Assembly (NCBI GenBank): GCA_002238645.1
Contig: MPMT01000013.1
Span: forward strand, 1-64,000
Direction of reading: 5' to 3'
Source of the DNA: Alphaproteobacteria bacterium bin52
GTDB lineage: Bacteria > Pseudomonadota > Alphaproteobacteria > Thalassobaculales > Thalassobaculaceae
DNA length: 64,000 bases
Positions 3 through 8,678 of the stretch are shown here, piece by piece. Below the pieces are notes generated by a model. The model searched no databases and was not told the origin of the DNA. It worked only from the letters and a program-made list of their open reading frames with translations. The position numbers were made by a program, and so were the translations under genes. The stretch's first letter is position 1; every line of letters begins with the position of its first letter.

Positions 3-1400
3 CATGAGAGTCCCGGCGGGTGCTATATCCGTGTGGGCGCATCGAAGCGGCTAATGGCCGGCGACGAGCGGTTACGCTTGGCACAACGGCGGTCGCAGGC
101 CCGCTTCTTGTGGTTCGACAAGCAGCCGGTGCCGGAGACCGGTTTCAGTACATTGGCCGAGGCCCTTTGGAAACCGTTGCTCAGCGCCGAGGGTGCGGCC
201 GAGCCGGAGGCGGCACTCGGGAAGCTGGCGCTCCTTGAAGACGATGAGGCCGGAGTCCTTCGCGCCACCGTAGCCGGCGTGCTGTTGTGCACTCAAGATC
301 CGGAACGATGGCTCCCGAACGCCTGCATCACGGCCACCAGATACCGCGGCGGAGACCGTGCATCGGGCCAGATCGACGCCCGGGAGATCACCGGCCCGCT
401 GAACGAACAGATCGCCGGCGCCGTTGCCTTTGCCGTCAGAAACATGCAGGTCGCGGCGCGTAAGGATCCGGCTCGTTCGGATCTGCCCCAGTACAGCGAA
501 AAGGCCCTGTTCGAAGCTTTGGTCAACGCAGTTGTCCATCGCGACTATTCCATGAGAGGAAGCAAGATTTTCCTGTCCATGTTCGACGATCGCCTGGAAA
601 TTCAATCGCCCGGTTCCCTGCCAAACAACCTGACGGTGGAGAGCATGGCCTCGCGGCAATCCACCCGAAACGAAGCCCTGACCTCTATATTGGCGCGCAT
701 GCCTGTCGGAGGGACCCGTGGCGGCGAAGACAGGCGTTACTACATGGAGCGCCGCGGCGACGGTGTGCTCATTATCCAACGCGAGACATGGGAACTGTGC
801 GGGAAGTATCCCAAGTACCAGATCGTCGACGACTCAGAGGTCCTTCTTGTCATTCCCGCGGCGACGCAAGAACGGAGTCCCGCTCGTGCCGTAATCTCCG
901 TGCGCTCCCACGGTCGGTCCTTTCCGGGCGCCGATCTCCTGCTCCTATTTCCGAACAAGACATGGAAACAAGCCACCACGGACGAGCAGGGCGAAGCGGC
1001 AATCGATCTGCACACGACCCAGCTGCCCATGACCGTGTTCGCGTCCGCGCCGGGACATGCCGCGCAACTAGAGCGGGACTGGAAACCCAGCGAACGCGCG
1101 CTGGCGATCGATTTGGAGGCCCTGCCGGCAGGCGGGTCCGTCATTTTCGCGGAGGCGACCGGTCATCTTCCAGGATTGAAGGGCAGGCTCAATCCCATAC
1201 GCGATGCCCATGACCGGACGTATCTCTACGCGTCGAACATCGCGATCGACGAAGGCAAGCAGCAGCCGGTCCACTTCATCCCGGGCGAGGAACTGCAATT
1301 GACCGATGCGGAAGGGACGGAACTGCACGTGCGGATCGTCGATATCGTGGGCCGGTCAGCCCTTGTCGAGTATTTCTACGCTCGGCGAGCAGGTCAGTGA
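3..1400 (+). CDS. ATP-binding protein with AlbA-like and GHKL (HATPase_c_4) domains, 5' end outside window
   Basis: The reading frame is open from base 3, so the true start lies off the left edge. The first visible residues (GGCYIRVGASKRLM, then QRRSQARFLWFDKQPVP) match the end of the Schlafen/AlbA_2 module common in ATP-binding regulators. A GHKL ATPase N-box (EALVNAVVHRDY, about residue 165 of the visible part) and a G1-type box (DRLEIQSPGSLP) follow, with a second glycine box near YYMERRGDGV. The last ~180 residues form a beta-rich extension I cannot name. Proteins of this build are common in genomic islands and defence loci. The next gene, on the same strand 66 bases on, is a broken HEPN gene, so the two were probably co-transcribed. 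Its substrate is unknown. Confidence 0.8.
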   Translation, partial: HESPGGCYIRVGASKRLMAGDERLRLAQRRSQARFLWFDKQPVPETGFSTLAEALWKPLLSAEGAAEPEAALGKLALLEDDEAGVLRATVAGVLLCTQDPERWLPNACITATRYRGGDRASGQIDAREITGPLNEQIAGAVAFAVRNMQVAARKDPARSDLPQYSEKALFEALVNAVVHRDYSMRGSKIFLSMFDDRLEIQSPGSLPNNLTVESMASRQSTRNEALTSILARMPVGGTRGGEDRRYYMERRGDGVLIIQRETWELCGKYPKYQIVDDSEVLLVIPAATQERSPARAVISVRSHGRSFPGADLLLLFPNKTWKQATTDEQGEAAIDLHTTQLPMTVFASAPGHAAQLERDWKPSERALAIDLEALPAGGSVIFAEATGHLPGLKGRLNPIRDAHDRTYLYASNIAIDEGKQQPVHFIPGEELQLTDAEGTELHVRIVDIVGRSALVEYFYARRAGQ

Positions 1401-1930: not shown

Positions 1931-2596
1931 TCACGCGTTCGTTTCCGCTGCGGAGACGGGCGGTTGTGGGGTCCAGGAGCGCTGCTGGCCAAGCAGGACA
2001 TTGGCCAGGACGATCAGTTTGCGCATGACCGCGACGACACCCGCCTTGTGGGCCTTGCCGGCATTGCGGAGCCGTTCGGCGAAGCTGCGCAGGTCTGGGT
2101 TCCAGTTGATTGCCGACAACGCAGCCATGTAGACAACATCGCGCGGTCGTCTGCGGCCCCCCGGACATGGCGGTTTCCGGAGGATGTCCCGCTGTCGCGG
2201 GCGTACGGGGCAACACCGGGCAGAGCGGCAGCCTGCCGGTTACCGATCGTGCCGAGTTCCGGCATCCAGGCGATCAGGGCTGCGGCGGTGATCGGTCCGA
2301 CGCCGGTGATGGATGTCAGGATGGCAGAGGCCTGCGCATGATCATCGGACCCTTCGATGAGGATCTTGATGTCCTCTTCAATCCCGGTGATCTGTTCCTT
2401 GAGGCTCTCAACAGCGCTCTTTGCCCGTGTCACCGCCATGGGAGTGATAACGCTCTGGCTGACCAGCTTCAGGGCGGTTCTGCCGTCGATCAGCCGGTCG
2501 CGGGTCACCATCAGATCCTGGAGCTGAGCGATACAGGCATCCTGTGGCGCCACCGGCGCCAGATCTGTCAAGGCCTGACCGTATCGCTGCAGCATG
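1931..2596 (-). pseudogene. Transposase of outer IS110 element, C-terminal part
   Basis: Minus-strand translation from 2596 gives MLQRYGQALTDLAPVAPQD, a charged helical linker, then the Tnp_20 (IS116/IS110/IS902) domain with the helix-hairpin-helix stretch TSITGVGPITAAALIAWMPE and the conserved region LPGVAPYARDSGTSSGNRHV. Around 2150 the frame slips, and the remainder (MAALSAINWNPDLRSFAERL to VLLGQQRSWTPQPPV) is read in another frame to a stop at 1931. The N-terminal half of the gene is on the far side of the inserted element. Confidence 0.75.
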
Positions 2597-2604
2597 GCAG
2601 ATCC

Positions 2605-2615
2605 TATGAGGCCCC
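2605..2615 (+). repeat. Left subterminal inverted repeat of the nested IS
   Basis: TATGAGGCCCC. It is repeated inverted at 4190-4201 with one extra G. The 7 bases 2598-2604 form the outer flank that belongs to the element. Confidence 0.7.
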
Positions 2616-2722
2616 GTTCGGGGGTCGGCGCTACGGTGCCGTCTTTTCCCATTTGACGAGGAGATTGACGATGTCCGCAAGGATCGCACCCGCGGCGCCG
2701 ACCGGTGCCGAGACGACCACGC

Positions 2723-3878
2723 GTGGCCATCGAGATCAGCCGGAAGAGCTGGGCGGTGGGGCTCAAGAGCCCGCTGGGCGAGAAGATCGGGCTGTACACG
2801 CTGGCCGCGGCGGACGTGGCCAGCCTCAAGGGGTTGCTCGAGCAGCACCGCACCCGGGCTGAGAAGTCGCTGGGCCGGGGGGGGGGAGAGATGCGGGTGT
2901 GCTACGAGGCCGGAGCTACGAGGGGGTCTGGCTGGCGCGCTGGCTGAAGCAGGAAATGGGTCTGGAGACGGTGGTGCTGGACCCGGCGAGTCTCCTGGTG
3001 AACCGCAAGGCGAAGCAACGCAAGACCGATCGGATCGACGCGACGAAGATGGTGCGTGCGCTGCTGGCGTATGACCGGGGCGACGCGGCAGTCCTGAGCC
3101 GGGTGCGGGTGCCGAGCGTCGAAGAGGAGGATCGCAAGCGTCTGCTCCGGGAGCGCCAGCGCCTGGTGAAGGAGCGGACGGCGCTGACGAATGCCATCAA
3201 AGGACTTCTCAAGCTGCACGGGGTGTTCGGCCTGGAGCCGCGTGCCCGCGACTTCGATGTGGCGTTCGCGGCCGTGACCACGGCCTGTGGCGAGCCGTTC
3301 CCGCCGCAGGCCGGCCAGGAGATCGAGCGTCTCGCCAACGGCTGGGGCTGGGGCTGGTCCTGCGACAGATCGAGGCGATCGAGGCCGAACGCGACCAGGC
3401 CGTGCGCCGCGCGGAGGCCGTGCACTGCGAGGCAGGCCGTCGTGCGGCGACGGGCGCGGGCAGCGGGGCCCGGGCCGACGCGTCGATCGCGGCGCTGGCC
3501 CGGCTCAAGGGGATCGGCACCAACGACGCGACCCTGCTGATGCACGAGATCTTCTACCGCCAGTTCGGCAACCGCCGCGAGCTCGCGAGCTGGGCCGGCC
3601 TGACACCGACACCGTGGGCCAGCGGCGATGTCCAGCGTGATCAGGGGATCGGCCGCGACGGGCCCGCCTGGATCCGCGCCCAGCTGGTGCAGATGGCCTG
3701 GCGCTGGGTCCGGTTCCAACCCGACAGTGCACTCAGCCAGTGGTTCGAGGCCCGCACCGCCGGTGCCCGGGGACGGATCCGCAGGGTCATGATCGTGGCC
3801 GTGGCCTGCAAGCTCCTGATCGCCCTGTGGCGCAATGCCGACACCGGTCTGGTGCCCATCGGCGCGCGCGTCGCCTGA
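2723..3878 (+). pseudogene. IS1111-type transposase, multiply frameshifted
   Basis: Translation begins around AIEISRKSWAVGLKSPLGEK (N-terminal RuvC-like DEDD domain) and is interrupted near a ten-G run at 2878-2887 and near 2914, where CYEAG changes frame to SYEGVWLARWLKQEMGLETV. It continues with KTDRIDATKMVRALLAYDRG, then slips again at a GGCTGG repeat near 3340. The C-terminal domain follows in the third frame: ARLKGIGTNDATLLMHEIF, ASWAGLTPTPWASGDVQRD with the probable catalytic serine, and a stop at 3878. It is recognisable from end to end but not translatable as one protein. The start is approximate. Confidence 0.75.
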
Positions 3879-4204
3879 CTCCGAGTTCCCGGAACCGGCC
3901 GGACGCGGCCGGCGCTGGGCCGGGTGGCGCGTGACCGAATCGATGGAGGGCTGCAAAATGCCGACTGCGCAGATGGGTCCCGCCTCCGGAACGTGGCGCC
4001 CGCAAGCAAGCGGGATCGAGGGACGGGCCGGCCATACCGCCGGCGACCGCCCGGATACAAGTTGTGTGCGCGGCTCAAGGCGCGACCGGTGCCAACGCGT
4101 TCCGACCCGGCATGACCAGATGCCGAACCGCTCCTCCGGAGGAGACCTGAACATGCTGTAGATCGCGCCGCCATCGCCGCTTGACACGGGGGGCCCTCAT
4201 ACAA
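3879..4204 (+). ncRNA. Candidate seek/bridge RNA region of the IS1111 element
   Basis: These 326 bases between the transposase stop and the right end have no plausible gene. In IS1111-group elements the guide RNA is encoded 3' of the transposase. At 3933-3955 the sequence GACCG-A-ATCGATG-GAGG-GCTGCA aligns without gaps to the insertion site read on the minus strand (GACCG-C-ATCGATG-CCAT-GCTGCA), 18 of 23 positions. ATACAA at 4055-4060 repeats the last six bases of the element (4199-4204), as a donor guide could. Transcription and folding are not shown by the sequence, so the RNA is inferred. Confidence 0.45.
4190..4201 (-). repeat. Right subterminal inverted repeat of the nested IS
   Basis: Read on the minus strand this is TATGAGGGCCCC, matching the left repeat at 2605-2615. 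Only CAA (4202-4204) separates it from the restored target sequence. Confidence 0.7.
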
Positions 4205-4498
4205 GCATCGATGCGGTCCGTCTTGGCCAACTCGCCGAACGCGAGGGCGAAGTGCCGGGTGTTTCTCGGGTTGACCACGAGGGCCTCGTAGCCCCGTTCA
4301 TGCAGGGACTGGTGGACGCTGCGGTGATAGCGCCCGGTCGCCGCCTCCGTCACCACCCGGGTGACCGAGTGCGTGCGCAGGAAACCGTGGAGCCCCCTCC
4401 AGTTCGATGCGGTGTTCTCGAACCGGCGGTCAACACCATCGACATGAACGTCGAGGTGTTGCTTGCTGCACCTCGATGCCGGCGACTACCATTGTCAT
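4205..4498 (-). pseudogene. Transposase of outer IS110 element, N-terminal part
   Basis: An ATG at 4498 opens MTMVVAGIEVQQ. A frameshift follows within about 30 bases, after which another frame reads LDVHVDGVDRRFENTASNW and onward to VTEAATGRYHRSVHQSLHER and NPRNTRHFALAFGELAKTDR. This is the RuvC-like N-terminal domain of IS110 transposases, ending in the conserved DRIDA motif exactly where the second element has inserted. The C-terminal part is at 1931-2596. Confidence 0.7.
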
Positions 4499-4784
4499 GT
4501 CCCTCGCTCCTCGTCTTGCAACAATACGGGTATGTCCAGGCATCCATTCAGGACACGAGGGACATAAGGGGCAGGCCGACCACGCTCACGCACGGGTCAA
4601 TCACCCGAGACGCCATCGGTCCGACCTGCCCCTGATGCCTCCATCCCGGCGAGGGGACGGAGGCCTCTCCAGAGTGCATCACCACCCCGGAAACCGTGTC
4701 AAATTCCGAAAGTTTTCCACAGAGGCCCCGACACCAGCCGCCTGTGGACAAATCAACACCAAAAGTGATGAAGAGGGTCAGACA
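4499..4784 (-). other. Non-coding 5' region of outer IS110 element, hairpin-rich
   Basis: This stretch lies upstream of the outer transposase start, where IS110-group elements encode their bridge RNA. Arms GGGGCAGG (4568-4575) and CCTGCCCC (4625-4632) can pair, enclosing a smaller hairpin CGGGT/ACCCG (4593-4597 with 4603-4607). No gene is seen. That it encodes a bridge RNA is inference from the family. Confidence 0.35.
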
Positions 4785-5320: not shown

Positions 5321-6025
5321 TCAATGCGAAGTTCTGTAGGCGAACGCGGCGGCAAACCGATGCTCACCCAGGTCGATGAGGTGCCAACTGTCCGATGGAG
5401 CGTGGGGGAACCGAAATTCACCCGACCGGGCGCCCCGCAGCATTGTCTCGGGCACTTCGAACCCGGACGGGTTCAGCGAAAAGCCGGAGCCAAGGGCCTT
5501 GATAAGTGCCTCCTTCATGCTCCAGAGCCGGAAAAAGAGGTGTTCCTTCTGCTGTCCGGAGGCGAGCGACAGCAGGCGGCGTTCCATCGGGCCGTAGACC
5601 AGGCTGCCGATGCCGTCGAGGTCGCGCCCGGGAGTGCGCTCGGCCACATCGATGCCAATCCTGTCATTCGATGCGAACACGAGGAGTCCGTGCTGACCAC
5701 AGTGGCTGACGTTGAACCCCGTACGCGCACGCCGGCCGTCGATGAGAGCGTAAGGTTTGCCGTGTTCACCGTACTCGAATGACAACTGGCTGTTGGTGCA
5801 GCCCAGTCGTTCCGCAAGGTTGATGCGGAGTGCCGCCCGGCAGAGGACGAAACGCCGCCCGGCGCCGGGTACAAGAAAACGGTGCCAACGGGCCTTCTCT
5901 TCATCGTCAAGGAGAGAGAACGCGCGCGCCTCGCGATCTGCATGCGGCGCGAGATCCACGTGGAACATGGTCGCACCCGCCACGGTGTGCCAGGGCCTCC
6001 ACCACAGGGACGCTGTCGTCGGCAT
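5321..6025 (-). CDS. 4'-phosphopantetheinyl transferase, Sfp/AcpT type
   Basis: The 234-residue product would transfer the 4'-phosphopantetheine arm of CoA to carrier proteins of fatty-acid, polyketide or non-ribosomal peptide synthesis. Visible family motifs are the substrate-binding stretch GRRFVLCRAALR, GFNVSHCGQHGLLVFA, the magnesium-binding IGIDVAE, and WSMKEALIKALGSG (the WxxKEA motif). I chose the ATG before PTTASLWWRPWH because Sfp proteins begin shortly before the conserved FHVDL stretch; the frame is open further upstream and an earlier start is possible. No synthase gene is adjacent, so the carrier protein cannot be named. Confidence 0.85.
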   Translation of the reverse strand: MPTTASLWWRPWHTVAGATMFHVDLAPHADREARAFSLLDDEEKARWHRFLVPGAGRRFVLCRAALRINLAERLGCTNSQLSFEYGEHGKPYALIDGRRARTGFNVSHCGQHGLLVFASNDRIGIDVAERTPGRDLDGIGSLVYGPMERRLLSLASGQQKEHLFFRLWSMKEALIKALGSGFSLNPSGFEVPETMLRGARSGEFRFPHAPSDSWHLIDLGEHRFAAAFAYRTSH

Positions 6026-7097
6026 TTGAAACTCGTACCAGTCTGATGTCAGTCGCGTCCAGCGCCGGCGGTTTGAGGACCGGTCGACGCGCGATACCGG
6101 CGCTGCCCCCACAGTGTCGGGCCGGGACCGGATGGGAACCATCCGGATGCGTGAATGTGACAACGCGCATTTGAGGCGAGACGAGCCGAAAGGGGGAGAT
6201 CCGGTTCCGGCTTGCCGGTGCCTGTTCTGCGCAGTGCAACCGACCTCGGCACCTGCAGTCGGTCACGGTCCGTCGCGACAGCGGACGGCGCGGTTCACAC
6301 GGCCTGGAAAGGAGCCTCCTGTAAACAGCATGCCTGCTCGCGGGACCGGCGTCCGCGGTGATGTCACCGGGTCAACAGGAGATGGAAACACAGCCGATCG
6401 GAAGTCATGCTGTGCGAGTGATGGGGGTCGAGCCTTCGGCGGCGCTGCCGTATCCGGGAGGCATGGTGGTGAGCGCGCAGGGACCAGGCCGGACAGAAGA
6501 ACCGGTCAGGCGCACAGCCCGGCACAGTTTCCAGTTCCTTCATGGGGGTCGTCGTGACGGTGCCCGACACCCGCAGCATCTTGGCATTGACGCTGGTGCC
6601 TTCGCTCACGGACAGCAGCCCGACTGCCGCGGCCTTGATCTCCCCCATGATCCCGCCCGTGGCGCATGGGGCACCTCTTGCAGCGGTACCTGCACAGACG
6701 AATCCGATTCGTGCCAGTCCGGAGTCAGGACGACCCGCGACCTTCGTCCCGTTCGTGTGTTTCTTCCCCGCGCCCGACCCGGGACCGGCCACCCGGGTCG
6801 AATTGCCGTACGCCCTGACCATGTCCGGATGCGCAATCGCGGGGCATGTTGCTGTCGACAGCGCTCCGGGGCTACCTTCATGAGGCTGGACATCTGATCC
6901 GACTGATAGCTCTGCAGTGGCTGATCCGCGCGGTACTGCTAGTCTCCGCGATGGCGCTCGCCATGCCCGGCAAGGATGTGATCAGCGTGGACAACCTGGA
7001 ACCGTCTATCGGCGGGACGGTTCCGGTCACGCCTGGCGCGGCAGCAGCCTGGCTGTTCCGCCGCATGGTACCTGCCCGCTGATCCGGAGAGATCGAC
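6026..7097. other. Long region without a recognisable intact gene
   Basis: About 1.07 kb separates the phosphopantetheinyl transferase from the ggt-like gene. Open frames exist on both strands, but only one minus-strand piece (6478-6822) shows codon use like real genes here. A GGAGAG ribosome-binding site at 7084-7089 belongs to the downstream gene. Its length is unusual for this compact sequence and suggests lost genes. Confidence 0.5.
6478..6822 (-). pseudogene. Possible coding remnant, unidentified
   Basis: Minus-strand translation gives a glycine- and alanine-rich stretch including GGIMGEIKAAAVGLLSVSEG, TSVNAKMLRVSGTVTTTPMK and ELETVPGC, with third codon positions almost all G or C, like the real genes around it. 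No start, ribosome-binding site or family could be assigned, and the coding character fades below about 6480. It may be a fragment of a lost gene or a chance open frame. Confidence 0.25.
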
Positions 7098-8678
7098 ATG
7101 CGCGACCTGCACCGGCCCGGCCGTTCCCCGGTCATGGCACCGGACGCGATGATTGCCACCAGCCACCCGCTGGCGAGCCAGGTCGGGATCGACATCCTCA
7201 AGTCGGGTGGCAATGCCGTCGATGCGGCGATCGCCGCCTGTGCGACGCTGTGCGTGGTCGAGCCCGCCATGACCGGCATCGGGGGTGACTGCTTTGCGCT
7301 CTATGCACCGGACGGGGCTTCACAGCCCGTCACCATCAACGGGTCGGGCCGCGCACCGGCCGGCGCCAGCGTGGACGCACTTCTCGAACGCGGGGTTTCG
7401 ACCATCGAGGTCCAGAGCCCGCATGCCGTCACCGTGCCGGGAGCAGTCGCGGCCTGGTGCCGGCTCAATGCCGATTACGGCCGCAAGGGGCTCGATGAGC
7501 TGCTGGCGCCAGCCATCCACTATGCCGAGAACGGGTATCCGGTGGCGCAGCGGGTCGGTTCCGACTGGGCCGGGCTGATACCGAAGCTGATGGCCGATGC
7601 GGTATCCTCGCGCAAGATGACGCTCGACGGGTCCGCGCCCCGCGTCGGGACGATCTTCCGCCAGCCGGAGCTCGGCTCAACCCTGCGGCGGATTGCGAAG
7701 CAGGGCAGGGACGGGTTCTACACCGGACCGGTTGCCGACGACATTGTCGAGCGGCTGCGCGGTCTCGGCGGCTTGCACACCCTGGATGACTTCGCCGGTT
7801 GCGAGCCCGAGTACGTCAGCCCCATCTCGACCGACTACCGCGGATTTACAGTCTATGAATGCCCTCCGAACGGACAGGGGATCTGTGCCCTGATGCTGCT
7901 CAACATCCTGTCCCGTCACCAGCCGGGCGGCATGTCGGAGGTCGACCGGGTCCATCTGATGGCGGAGGCGGCCAAGCGGGCCTACCGGCAGCGTGACCGC
8001 TACGTGACCGACCCCGGGTTCTGCACCGTGCCGGTCGACTGGCTGCTGTCCGGGGAACACGCGGCCCGGCTTGATGCCCTGATCGACCCTGCCCGATCGA
8101 CGGAGATGGCGGAGACGGATTTCCCCGATCACGAGGACACGACCTATCTCTGCTGCGTCGACGCCGACGGCAACGCCATCTCGTTCATCAACTCGCTTTT
8201 CGCCGGGTTCGGATCCGGCATCATGGCGGAAAGGTCCGGCGTGATGCTGCAGAACAGGGGAAGTTCATTCCGCGTCGACCATGACCATGCCAACCGGATC
8301 GAGGGCGGAAAGCGCCCGATGCACACCATCATTCCCGGCATGGTCATGAAAGACAACGCGGCCGTGGCGCCGTTCGGGGTCATGGGCGGCCATTACCAGC
8401 CTGTCGGCCACGCGAGCCTGCTCAGCCATGTACTCGACCGTGGGCTGGACATTCAGGAGGCGATGGACGAGCCACGCAGCCTTGCGATCAACGGTGTCCT
8501 GCAGGTCGAGAACGCCTTCGCGCCGGAGACCTATGTCGAACTCGAGCGGCGCGGCCACGTGCTCGAACATGTCGCGGCACCGCTCGGTGGCAGCCAGTGT
8601 GTCTGGATTGACCGGACCGAGGGCGTGCTGATCGGAGGATCGGACCCGCGCAAGGACGGGTGCGCGATCGGCTACTGA
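7098..8678 (+). CDS. Gamma-glutamyltransferase family protein (Ntn hydrolase)
   Basis: The 526-residue product has the ggt fold: the N-terminal stretch MIATSHPLASQVGIDILKSG, then GNAVDAAIAACATLCVVEPA and TGIGGDCFALYA, and the self-cleavage site with the catalytic threonine at about residue 348 (HEDTTYLCCVDADGN). The C-terminus reads GGSDPRKDGCAIGY. No signal peptide is visible, unlike periplasmic GGT, so it probably acts in the cytoplasm on a gamma-glutamyl or other amide substrate. It starts after GGAGAG, and a cyclase-family hydrolase and an ADP-forming acyl-CoA synthetase follow on the same strand, suggesting a catabolic operon. A second family member lies at 58784. The exact substrate is not deducible. 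Confidence 0.9.
   Translation: MRDLHRPGRSPVMAPDAMIATSHPLASQVGIDILKSGGNAVDAAIAACATLCVVEPAMTGIGGDCFALYAPDGASQPVTINGSGRAPAGASVDALLERGVSTIEVQSPHAVTVPGAVAAWCRLNADYGRKGLDELLAPAIHYAENGYPVAQRVGSDWAGLIPKLMADAVSSRKMTLDGSAPRVGTIFRQPELGSTLRRIAKQGRDGFYTGPVADDIVERLRGLGGLHTLDDFAGCEPEYVSPISTDYRGFTVYECPPNGQGICALMLLNILSRHQPGGMSEVDRVHLMAEAAKRAYRQRDRYVTDPGFCTVPVDWLLSGEHAARLDALIDPARSTEMAETDFPDHEDTTYLCCVDADGNAISFINSLFAGFGSGIMAERSGVMLQNRGSSFRVDHDHANRIEGGKRPMHTIIPGMVMKDNAAVAPFGVMGGHYQPVGHASLLSHVLDRGLDIQEAMDEPRSLAINGVLQVENAFAPETYVELERRGHVLEHVAAPLGGSQCVWIDRTEGVLIGGSDPRKDGCAIGY

What the first reader, a model, noticed from the sequence alone, without database searches (positions are those of the whole stretch)
3879..4218. 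IS1111-group element carries a guide-like match to its own insertion site
Seen: read on the minus strand, the restored target is GACCG-C-ATCGATG-C (4218-4205) joined to CAT-GCTGCA (2596-2588). The element's non-coding 3' region at 3933-3955 reads GACCG-A-ATCGATG-GAGG-GCTGCA, gap-free, 18 of 23 positions. A second motif, ATACAA (4055-4060), equals the element's terminal six bases (4199-4204). Known: IS110/IS1111 transposases are guided by an element-encoded RNA with target and donor guides; in IS1111 it is encoded 3' of the transposase gene. GCTGCA also reads inside the reverse complement of the target, because GCTGCAGC is a palindrome, so it can serve as a right guide. Inference: 3879-4204 encodes the guide RNA, and the guide is visible together with its real target.
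Basis: partly seen in the sequence, partly recalled or inferred. Interest (0 to 1): 0.78.

Follow-up and report, generated by a model that had tools for sequence, protein, structure and literature searches.

The report
Decayed IS1111 element with guide RNA
A worn-out jumping gene of the known IS1111 family sits inside the transposase gene of another jumping gene, and the stretch behind its own transposase still encodes the folded guide RNA that chooses where it lands; the kind is known, but comparison with relatives shows which letters are the guides and that most of the match first noticed is not guide.

Summary
Window 2600-4204 is a degenerate IS1111-type insertion sequence; its transposase is broken by frameshifts. 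It interrupts the TDRIDA codons of a minus-strand IS110-family transposase gene; removing it restores the frame (KTDRIDAAMLQRYG). Its 3' non-coding region does encode a seekRNA/bridge-RNA-like structure. Relatives share the fold (97% of pairs kept, 10 pairs with two-sided changes), and only short loop segments vary, tracking the flanks. The 5' target guide matches its own right flank at 89/144 positions over 16 copies, against 54 when flanks are permuted (0 of 200,000 as good). A second guide reads the left flank. A donor guide (ATACAA in the window) equals the element's right end in 14 of 16 copies. Only ATCGATG (3939-3945) is true guide match. The ATACAA observation is right. AG occurs at both junctions of nearly every copy, like IS621's CT core on the other strand. 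In this copy the guide reads GA there and the second guide fits poorly, so it is probably inactive. New member of a known kind.

The parts
2600..4204 (+). IS1111-type insertion sequence, degenerate; boundaries exact only to within the AG core (2599-2600 and 4204-4205)
   Evidence: 81-85% identical end to end to L006, L007, L009, L010; empty sites in G396; excision restores target frame
2671..3878 (+). Transposase gene remnant (DEDD domain and Transposase_20 domain), at least two frameshifts
   Evidence: Pfam PF01548, PF02371; readable only in several frames while four relatives have about 400 open codons
2599..2600 (+). Left copy of AG core dinucleotide
   Evidence: AG at 13/13 distinct left junctions
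4204..4205 (+). Right copy of AG core dinucleotide
   Evidence: AG at the right ends of all copies of this family except L061
2605..2611 (+). Left subterminal inverted repeat TATGAGG
   Evidence: read from the sequence; conserved in relatives
4195..4201 (+). Right subterminal inverted repeat CCTCATA
   Evidence: read from the sequence; conserved in relatives
3919..4105 (+). seekRNA/bridge-RNA-like structured region (extent modelled; transcript ends unknown)
   Evidence: covariance model R1 hits in relatives; covariation
3926..3936 (+).
3938..3946 (+). 5' target guide (complementary to top strand of right flank); ATCGATG 3939-3945 matches, core position 3946-3947 reads GA
   Evidence: covariation with right flank over 16 copies
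3949..3962 (+).
3964..3972 (+). 3' target guide (reads as left flank plus AG core); poor match in this copy
   Evidence: covariation in L007, L011, L066, L068, L118
3976..3984 (+). 3' arm of the stem below the target loop
4013..4017 (+). Putative second donor guide GGATC (reverse complement of left end GATCC); tentative
   Evidence: sequence match; relative L014 has AATC with left end GATTA; L007 has one mismatch
4055..4061 (+). Donor guide ATACAAG, identical to the right terminus plus G of the core
   Evidence: covaries with right end, 14 of 16 identical
4205..4510 (-). 5' part of the interrupted IS110-family transposase gene (target), up to the TDRIDA codons; itself frameshifted
   Evidence: PF01548, frame restored across the junction
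2014..2599 (-). 3' part of the interrupted IS110-family transposase gene (target)
   Evidence: PF02371

Best explanation
A degenerate copy of an IS1111-type insertion sequence whose 3' non-coding region encodes a seekRNA/bridge RNA. [quoted passage not shown] A second loop carries a donor guide that pairs with the joined ends of the excised element. An intact ancestor used this RNA with its DEDD transposase to insert, without target duplication beyond the core, into the TDRIDA codons of an IS110-family transposase gene. Shown here: element and target anatomy, conserved fold, covariation of guides with targets and ends. Inferred: transcription, binding to the transposase, the recombination itself, and that this copy is now inactive.
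For: Own-guide to own-flank covariation: 5' guide 80/126 over 14 copies (mean 47 permuted, 0/100,000), 3' guide permutation fraction 0.00035 over 8 copies, donor guide 14/16 identical; copy L118, found later, fits 8/9 in the preset register and 6 of 7 in the 3' guide; with L118 and L142, 89/144, 0/200,000. Structure: 97.0% of cells paired, 10 pairs with two-sided changes, 0/500 shuffles; guides fall in loops. 51 empty target sites for relative L011/L012. Target frame restored by removing 2600-4204. Order of guides (top-strand guide 5', bottom-strand guide 3') and downstream NCR as published for IS1111 (PMC11187229); core included in guides as in IS621 (PMC11208160).
Against: Five of 16 copies (L008, L009, L005, L047, L142) do not match in the preset register; L142 fits only when shifted one base; L008 and L009 share one guide set at two unrelated sites. 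In the window the 3' guide fits badly and the core position of the 5' guide is wrong. Permutations ignore relatedness of copies. No transcript evidence. Total terminal extension is about 8 bp, not the published 9-10 bp.
Confidence: 0.92

Rival explanations
1. One reading: one contiguous 23-nt guide 3933-3955 copies the target across the junction, with GCTGCA acting as right guide through its palindrome.
Against: The junction omits three target bases. GACCG and GGGCTG are conserved in relatives at unrelated sites and are paired in the fold. The real 3' guide lies at about 3964-3972.
Confidence: 0.02
2. The region encodes a guide RNA in relatives, but this particular insertion was made by another guide (a different copy acting in trans, or guides later replaced by mutation or gene conversion), and the 7-nt match is coincidence.
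For: Core position and 3' guide mismatch in the window; copies L008 and L009 show that guides and sites can be uncoupled. Chance of 7/9 is about 0.0012, small but for one copy.
Against: 7/9 in a register fixed by other copies, the best fit of this guide to any flank tested (others at most 5); donor guide identical to the own right end.
Confidence: 0.06
3. No guide RNA at all: conserved non-coding end sequence with chance similarity to flanks.
For: No transcript data; no Rfam family matches above chance.
Against: Joint covariation of target guides, donor guide and RNA stems; experiments on the family (PMC11187229, PMC11208160).
Confidence: 0.01

Closest known systems
IS1111 family insertion sequences with seekRNA (ISEc11, ISPa11, ISKpn4; PMC11187229)
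   Same: DEDD transposase, subterminal inverted repeats, long non-coding region downstream of the transposase gene, two short target guides in the order top-strand then bottom-strand, overlapping at the insertion point, no ordinary target duplication
   Different: Own sequence subfamily with no NCR match in plasmids or Rfam; total terminal extension about 8 bp instead of 9-10; AG core visible at both junctions; this copy degenerate
IS621 / IS110 group bridge RNA (PMC11208160)
   Same: Target loop and donor loop, guides on two sides of an internal loop, core dinucleotide included in guide pairing
   Different: NCR lies 3' of the transposase gene, guide order reversed, core AG in transposase orientation (CT on the other strand), longer inverted repeats
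IS4321/IS5075 (IS1111 members in Tn21 terminal repeats; cited in PMC11187229 and PMC11208160)
   Same: IS1111 elements that insert into other mobile elements
   Different: There the target is a transposon end in many copies; here it is the coding sequence of a transposase catalytic motif in a single copy
ISCro4 transposase (PDB 9t56)
   Same: Only sequence match among solved structures, C-terminal domain of relative L006, E = 0.0004
   Different: Distant; a different subfamily

Membership tests
IS1111 family | DEDD (RuvC-like) transposase with Transposase_20 C-terminal domain, homologous over full length | tested here: met
   PF01548 and PF02371 in window fragments and in intact relative L006; NF033542 over 26-390 of L006
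IS1111 family | Subterminal inverted repeats (7-17 bp) | tested here: met
   TATGAGG 2605-2611 and CCTCATA 4195-4201, 7 perfect bp then near-match; conserved in relatives; at the short end of the range
IS1111 family | Asymmetric terminal extensions, 7 and 3 bp (occasionally 6 and 3) | tested here: inconclusive
   A 7 + 3 reading is possible on paper (CAGATCC, CAA) but empty sites and reading frame give 5 + 3 (or 6 + 2) because the bases before AG belong to the target
IS1111 family | Long non-coding region downstream of the transposase gene | tested here: met
   3879-4204, 326 bp
IS1111 seekRNA | Two target guides in the NCR, top-strand guide 5' of bottom-strand guide, covarying with the target | tested here: met
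   Met in the subfamily; in the window copy 5' guide 7/9, 3' guide poor
IS1111 seekRNA | Conserved RNA fold with guides in loops | tested here: met
IS1111 seekRNA | RNA of about 80-150 nt bound to the transposase and required for transposition | not testable with these tools
   needs expression and RNA sequencing
IS1111 family | Circular intermediate with abutted ends, insertion without added bases | not testable with these tools
   Circle not testable; absence of added bases agrees with the empty sites and frame restoration
IS110/IS621 bridge RNA | Donor guides pairing with the element's own ends | tested here: met
   ATACAA block identical to right terminus in 14 of 16 copies; left-end donor guide only suggested
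IS110/IS621 bridge RNA | Core dinucleotide shared by target and donor and included in the guides | tested here: met
   AG at both junctions; guides of relatives carry CT/TT and AG there; window 5' guide reads GA

The most novel reading that the evidence does not exclude
The ancestor's guide was under selection to hit the conserved TDRIDA catalytic-motif codons of IS110-family transposases, making it an RNA-guided element that inserts into and disables competing RNA-guided elements, while codon differences spare its own gene (own gene GATCGGATCGACG, target GACCGCATCGATG).
Probability: 0.05. Interest if true: 0.65.

Novelty: new member of a known kind. Interest (0 to 1): 0.3.

Why it matters
It adds a subfamily of IS1111 elements, mostly in Alphaproteobacteria, with natural guide-target and guide-end pairs, a visible AG core, and a multi-copy natural target (51 empty sites in one genome): useful material for predicting targets and donor guides of IS1111 recombinases. 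It also shows how a real guide region can look longer than it is when constant scaffold happens to resemble the flank.

Tried and rejected
Rfam scan of the region: nothing above chance. Plasmid collection searched with the NCR: no match. Viral contigs searched with the target transposase: none confirmed. Search for an intact copy of the target transposase in the genome and its family: only a 415-nt fragment at 95% on contig C83 that lacks the site, and weaker fragments, so the empty site was inferred from the reading frame and from a relative's target. Element starting at 2598 (7-bp left extension): rejected, it leaves the target out of frame and disagrees with the 51 empty sites. Flanks of other copies checked for IS110 genes: diverse (a repeat and unrelated ORFs, not identified further), so no general preference for transposase genes. 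Phylum-wide search for more copies: none beyond the own genome. Papers searched for IS1111 insertions into IS110 transposase genes: none among those listed.

Full report
What the sequence holds. The window lies in a 4.2-Mb genome whose class-mates with the same element are Alphaproteobacteria. At 2600-4204 it carries an insertion sequence with an IS110/IS1111-type transposase (PF01548 and PF02371). Relatives L006, L007, L009 and L010 are 81-85% identical from end to end and have an uninterrupted frame of about 400 codons, whereas the window copy is readable only in several frames. It is a decayed copy. Both flanks are parts of one minus-strand IS110-family transposase gene.

Where the element ends. 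Relative L011/L012 has left flank GGGGCTACTCA and right flank GGATGAGG; its genome (G396) holds 51 uninterrupted copies of GGGGCTACT-NN-GGATGAGG (mostly NN = CA) and none of the control pattern. So the two bases before GATCC belong to the target. Applied to the window, removing 2600-4204 gives AAGACGGACCGCATCGATGC|TGCCATGCTGCAGCGATAC = KTDRIDAAMLQRY, one open frame through the junction, in line with the homologue TDRLDAAMLARM in L081. At 13 of 13 distinct left junctions, and at the right ends of all copies of this family but L061, the dinucleotide AG is present (the search expression for right ends also caught some unrelated strings). AG behaves like the CT core of IS621 (PMC11208160) read on the other strand, and the boundary cannot be placed more exactly than within it.

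The non-coding region. Aligned NCRs are conserved except for short blocks. Block 1 follows GTGACCG and is the reverse complement of the right flank in a fixed register: L007 GCTGGCGCTGG 11/11 (running across the junction), L010 CATCGGGCTGG 11/11, L015 CCTCCTGC, L014 ACGGCGC, L002 TGGGAGC, window ATCGATG. Over 14 copies 80 of 126 positions match, mean 47 when flanks are permuted, 0 of 100,000 permutations as good. L118, found afterwards with the covariance model, matched 8/9 in the preset register, and its left flank CGAACA-G matched its second guide GAACAG. L142, also found afterwards, matched 1/9 in the preset register and about 7/9 by eye if shifted one base, so it counts against the preset register. 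With both, 89/144 against a mean of 54, 0 of 200,000. Block 2 lies beyond the GGGCTG hairpin and reads like the left flank plus AG (L007 TCTCC-AG, L011 TACTC-AG, L066 ACCCGG-AG), permutation fraction 0.00035 over eight copies. A third block, ATACAA in the window, equals the right terminus and changes with it (ATAAGA, ATAAAA, ATAGGA): 14 of 16 identical, 4.5 expected, 0 of 100,000. These permutations treat copies as independent, which related sequences are not; but the target guides themselves differ from copy to copy, which is why they are informative.

Structure. RNAalifold places blocks 1 and 2 on the two sides of one internal loop, closed below by 3926-3936/3976-3984 and above by the small hairpin 3949-3951/3960-3962. 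Counting named pairs over 17 sequences: 97.0% of cells paired (shuffled 91.0), 10 pairs and 32 cells with two-sided changes, covariation score 0.221 against 0.113, no shuffle of 500 as high in these measures (the count of pair types was not above its shuffles); sliding the partner by 1-3 columns drops pairing to 35-45%. A structure derived from the alignment exceeds slid versions partly for that reason; the two-sided changes in the lower stem (5 of 9 pairs) are the stronger evidence. The donor block lies in the 3' part of the fold, next to a second stem, as expected for a donor-binding loop.

What this does to the original observation. Of the 18 matching positions, GACCG (3933-3937) and GCTGCA (3950-3955) are scaffold: 8 of these 11 columns are invariant over 13 copies inserted elsewhere, three vary (3934 in three rows, 3935 in two, 3954 in eight), and they lie in the stem and hairpin. 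The seven that remain, ATCGATG, are the guide. The statement about ATACAA is right.

Mechanism. Inferred from the anatomy and from experiments on ISEc11, ISPa11, ISKpn4 and IS621 (PMC11187229, PMC11208160): the transposase-bound RNA pairs with both strands of a short target around AG and with the joined ends of the excised circle, and strand exchange at AG inserts the element. For this copy the 5' guide keeps 7/9 of its match but reads GA at the core, where relatives read mostly CT or TT; its 3' guide (ACTGCGCAG) fits the left flank ATGGCAG only with a bulged C. With the broken transposase this points to an old, inactive insertion. Neighbouring genes are intact, so general sequencing error is unlikely to explain the frameshifts.

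Exceptions. L008 and L009, from one metagenome bin, carry identical guides at different sites and match neither; L008's donor guide also disagrees with its own right end. Gene conversion or mis-assembly could explain this; it was not resolved. L005 and L047 also fail.

Is the target special? Insertion into the TDRIDA codons of an IS110 transposase is striking, but other copies of the subfamily sit in unrelated places and only this one does it. IS1111 elements that hit other mobile elements are already known (IS4321/IS5075 in Tn21 ends, cited in both papers). I give the idea of a guide selected against rival transposases a low probability.

Noticed in passing
Relative genome G396 (loci L088-L116): The target of relative L011/L012, GGGGCTACTCAGGATGAGG, occurs 51 times uninterrupted in one genome; the flank GGCCGGGGCTACT is palindrome-rich, so this looks like a REP-type repeat family used as landing site.
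   Followed up: partly
L008 and L009 (bin EF100-94H03 bin56): Two copies carry identical guides at unrelated sites and match neither flank; three left flanks in that genome share TAG-AG, suggesting a different former guide. Possible gene conversion of the guide region or assembly chimera.
   Followed up: partly
window 4205-4547 and 1931-2595 (-): The interrupted IS110-family transposase is itself frameshifted near both ends, so host and guest elements are both decayed; a 415-nt fragment of it (95%) lies on contig C83 of the same genome.
   Followed up: partly
window 4181-4186 and relatives: TTGACA is conserved about 20 bp inside the right end in most relatives; joined to the left end in a circle it could supply the -35 box of a junction promoter, as described for ISEc11. 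No clear -10 at 17 bp was found by eye.
   Followed up: no
window 33-1400 (+), 5321-6163 (-), 7098-8678 (+): Neighbouring intact genes: RecG C-terminal-like protein (PF13749), 4'-phosphopantetheinyl transferase (PF01648), gamma-glutamyltranspeptidase (PF01019).
   Followed up: partly
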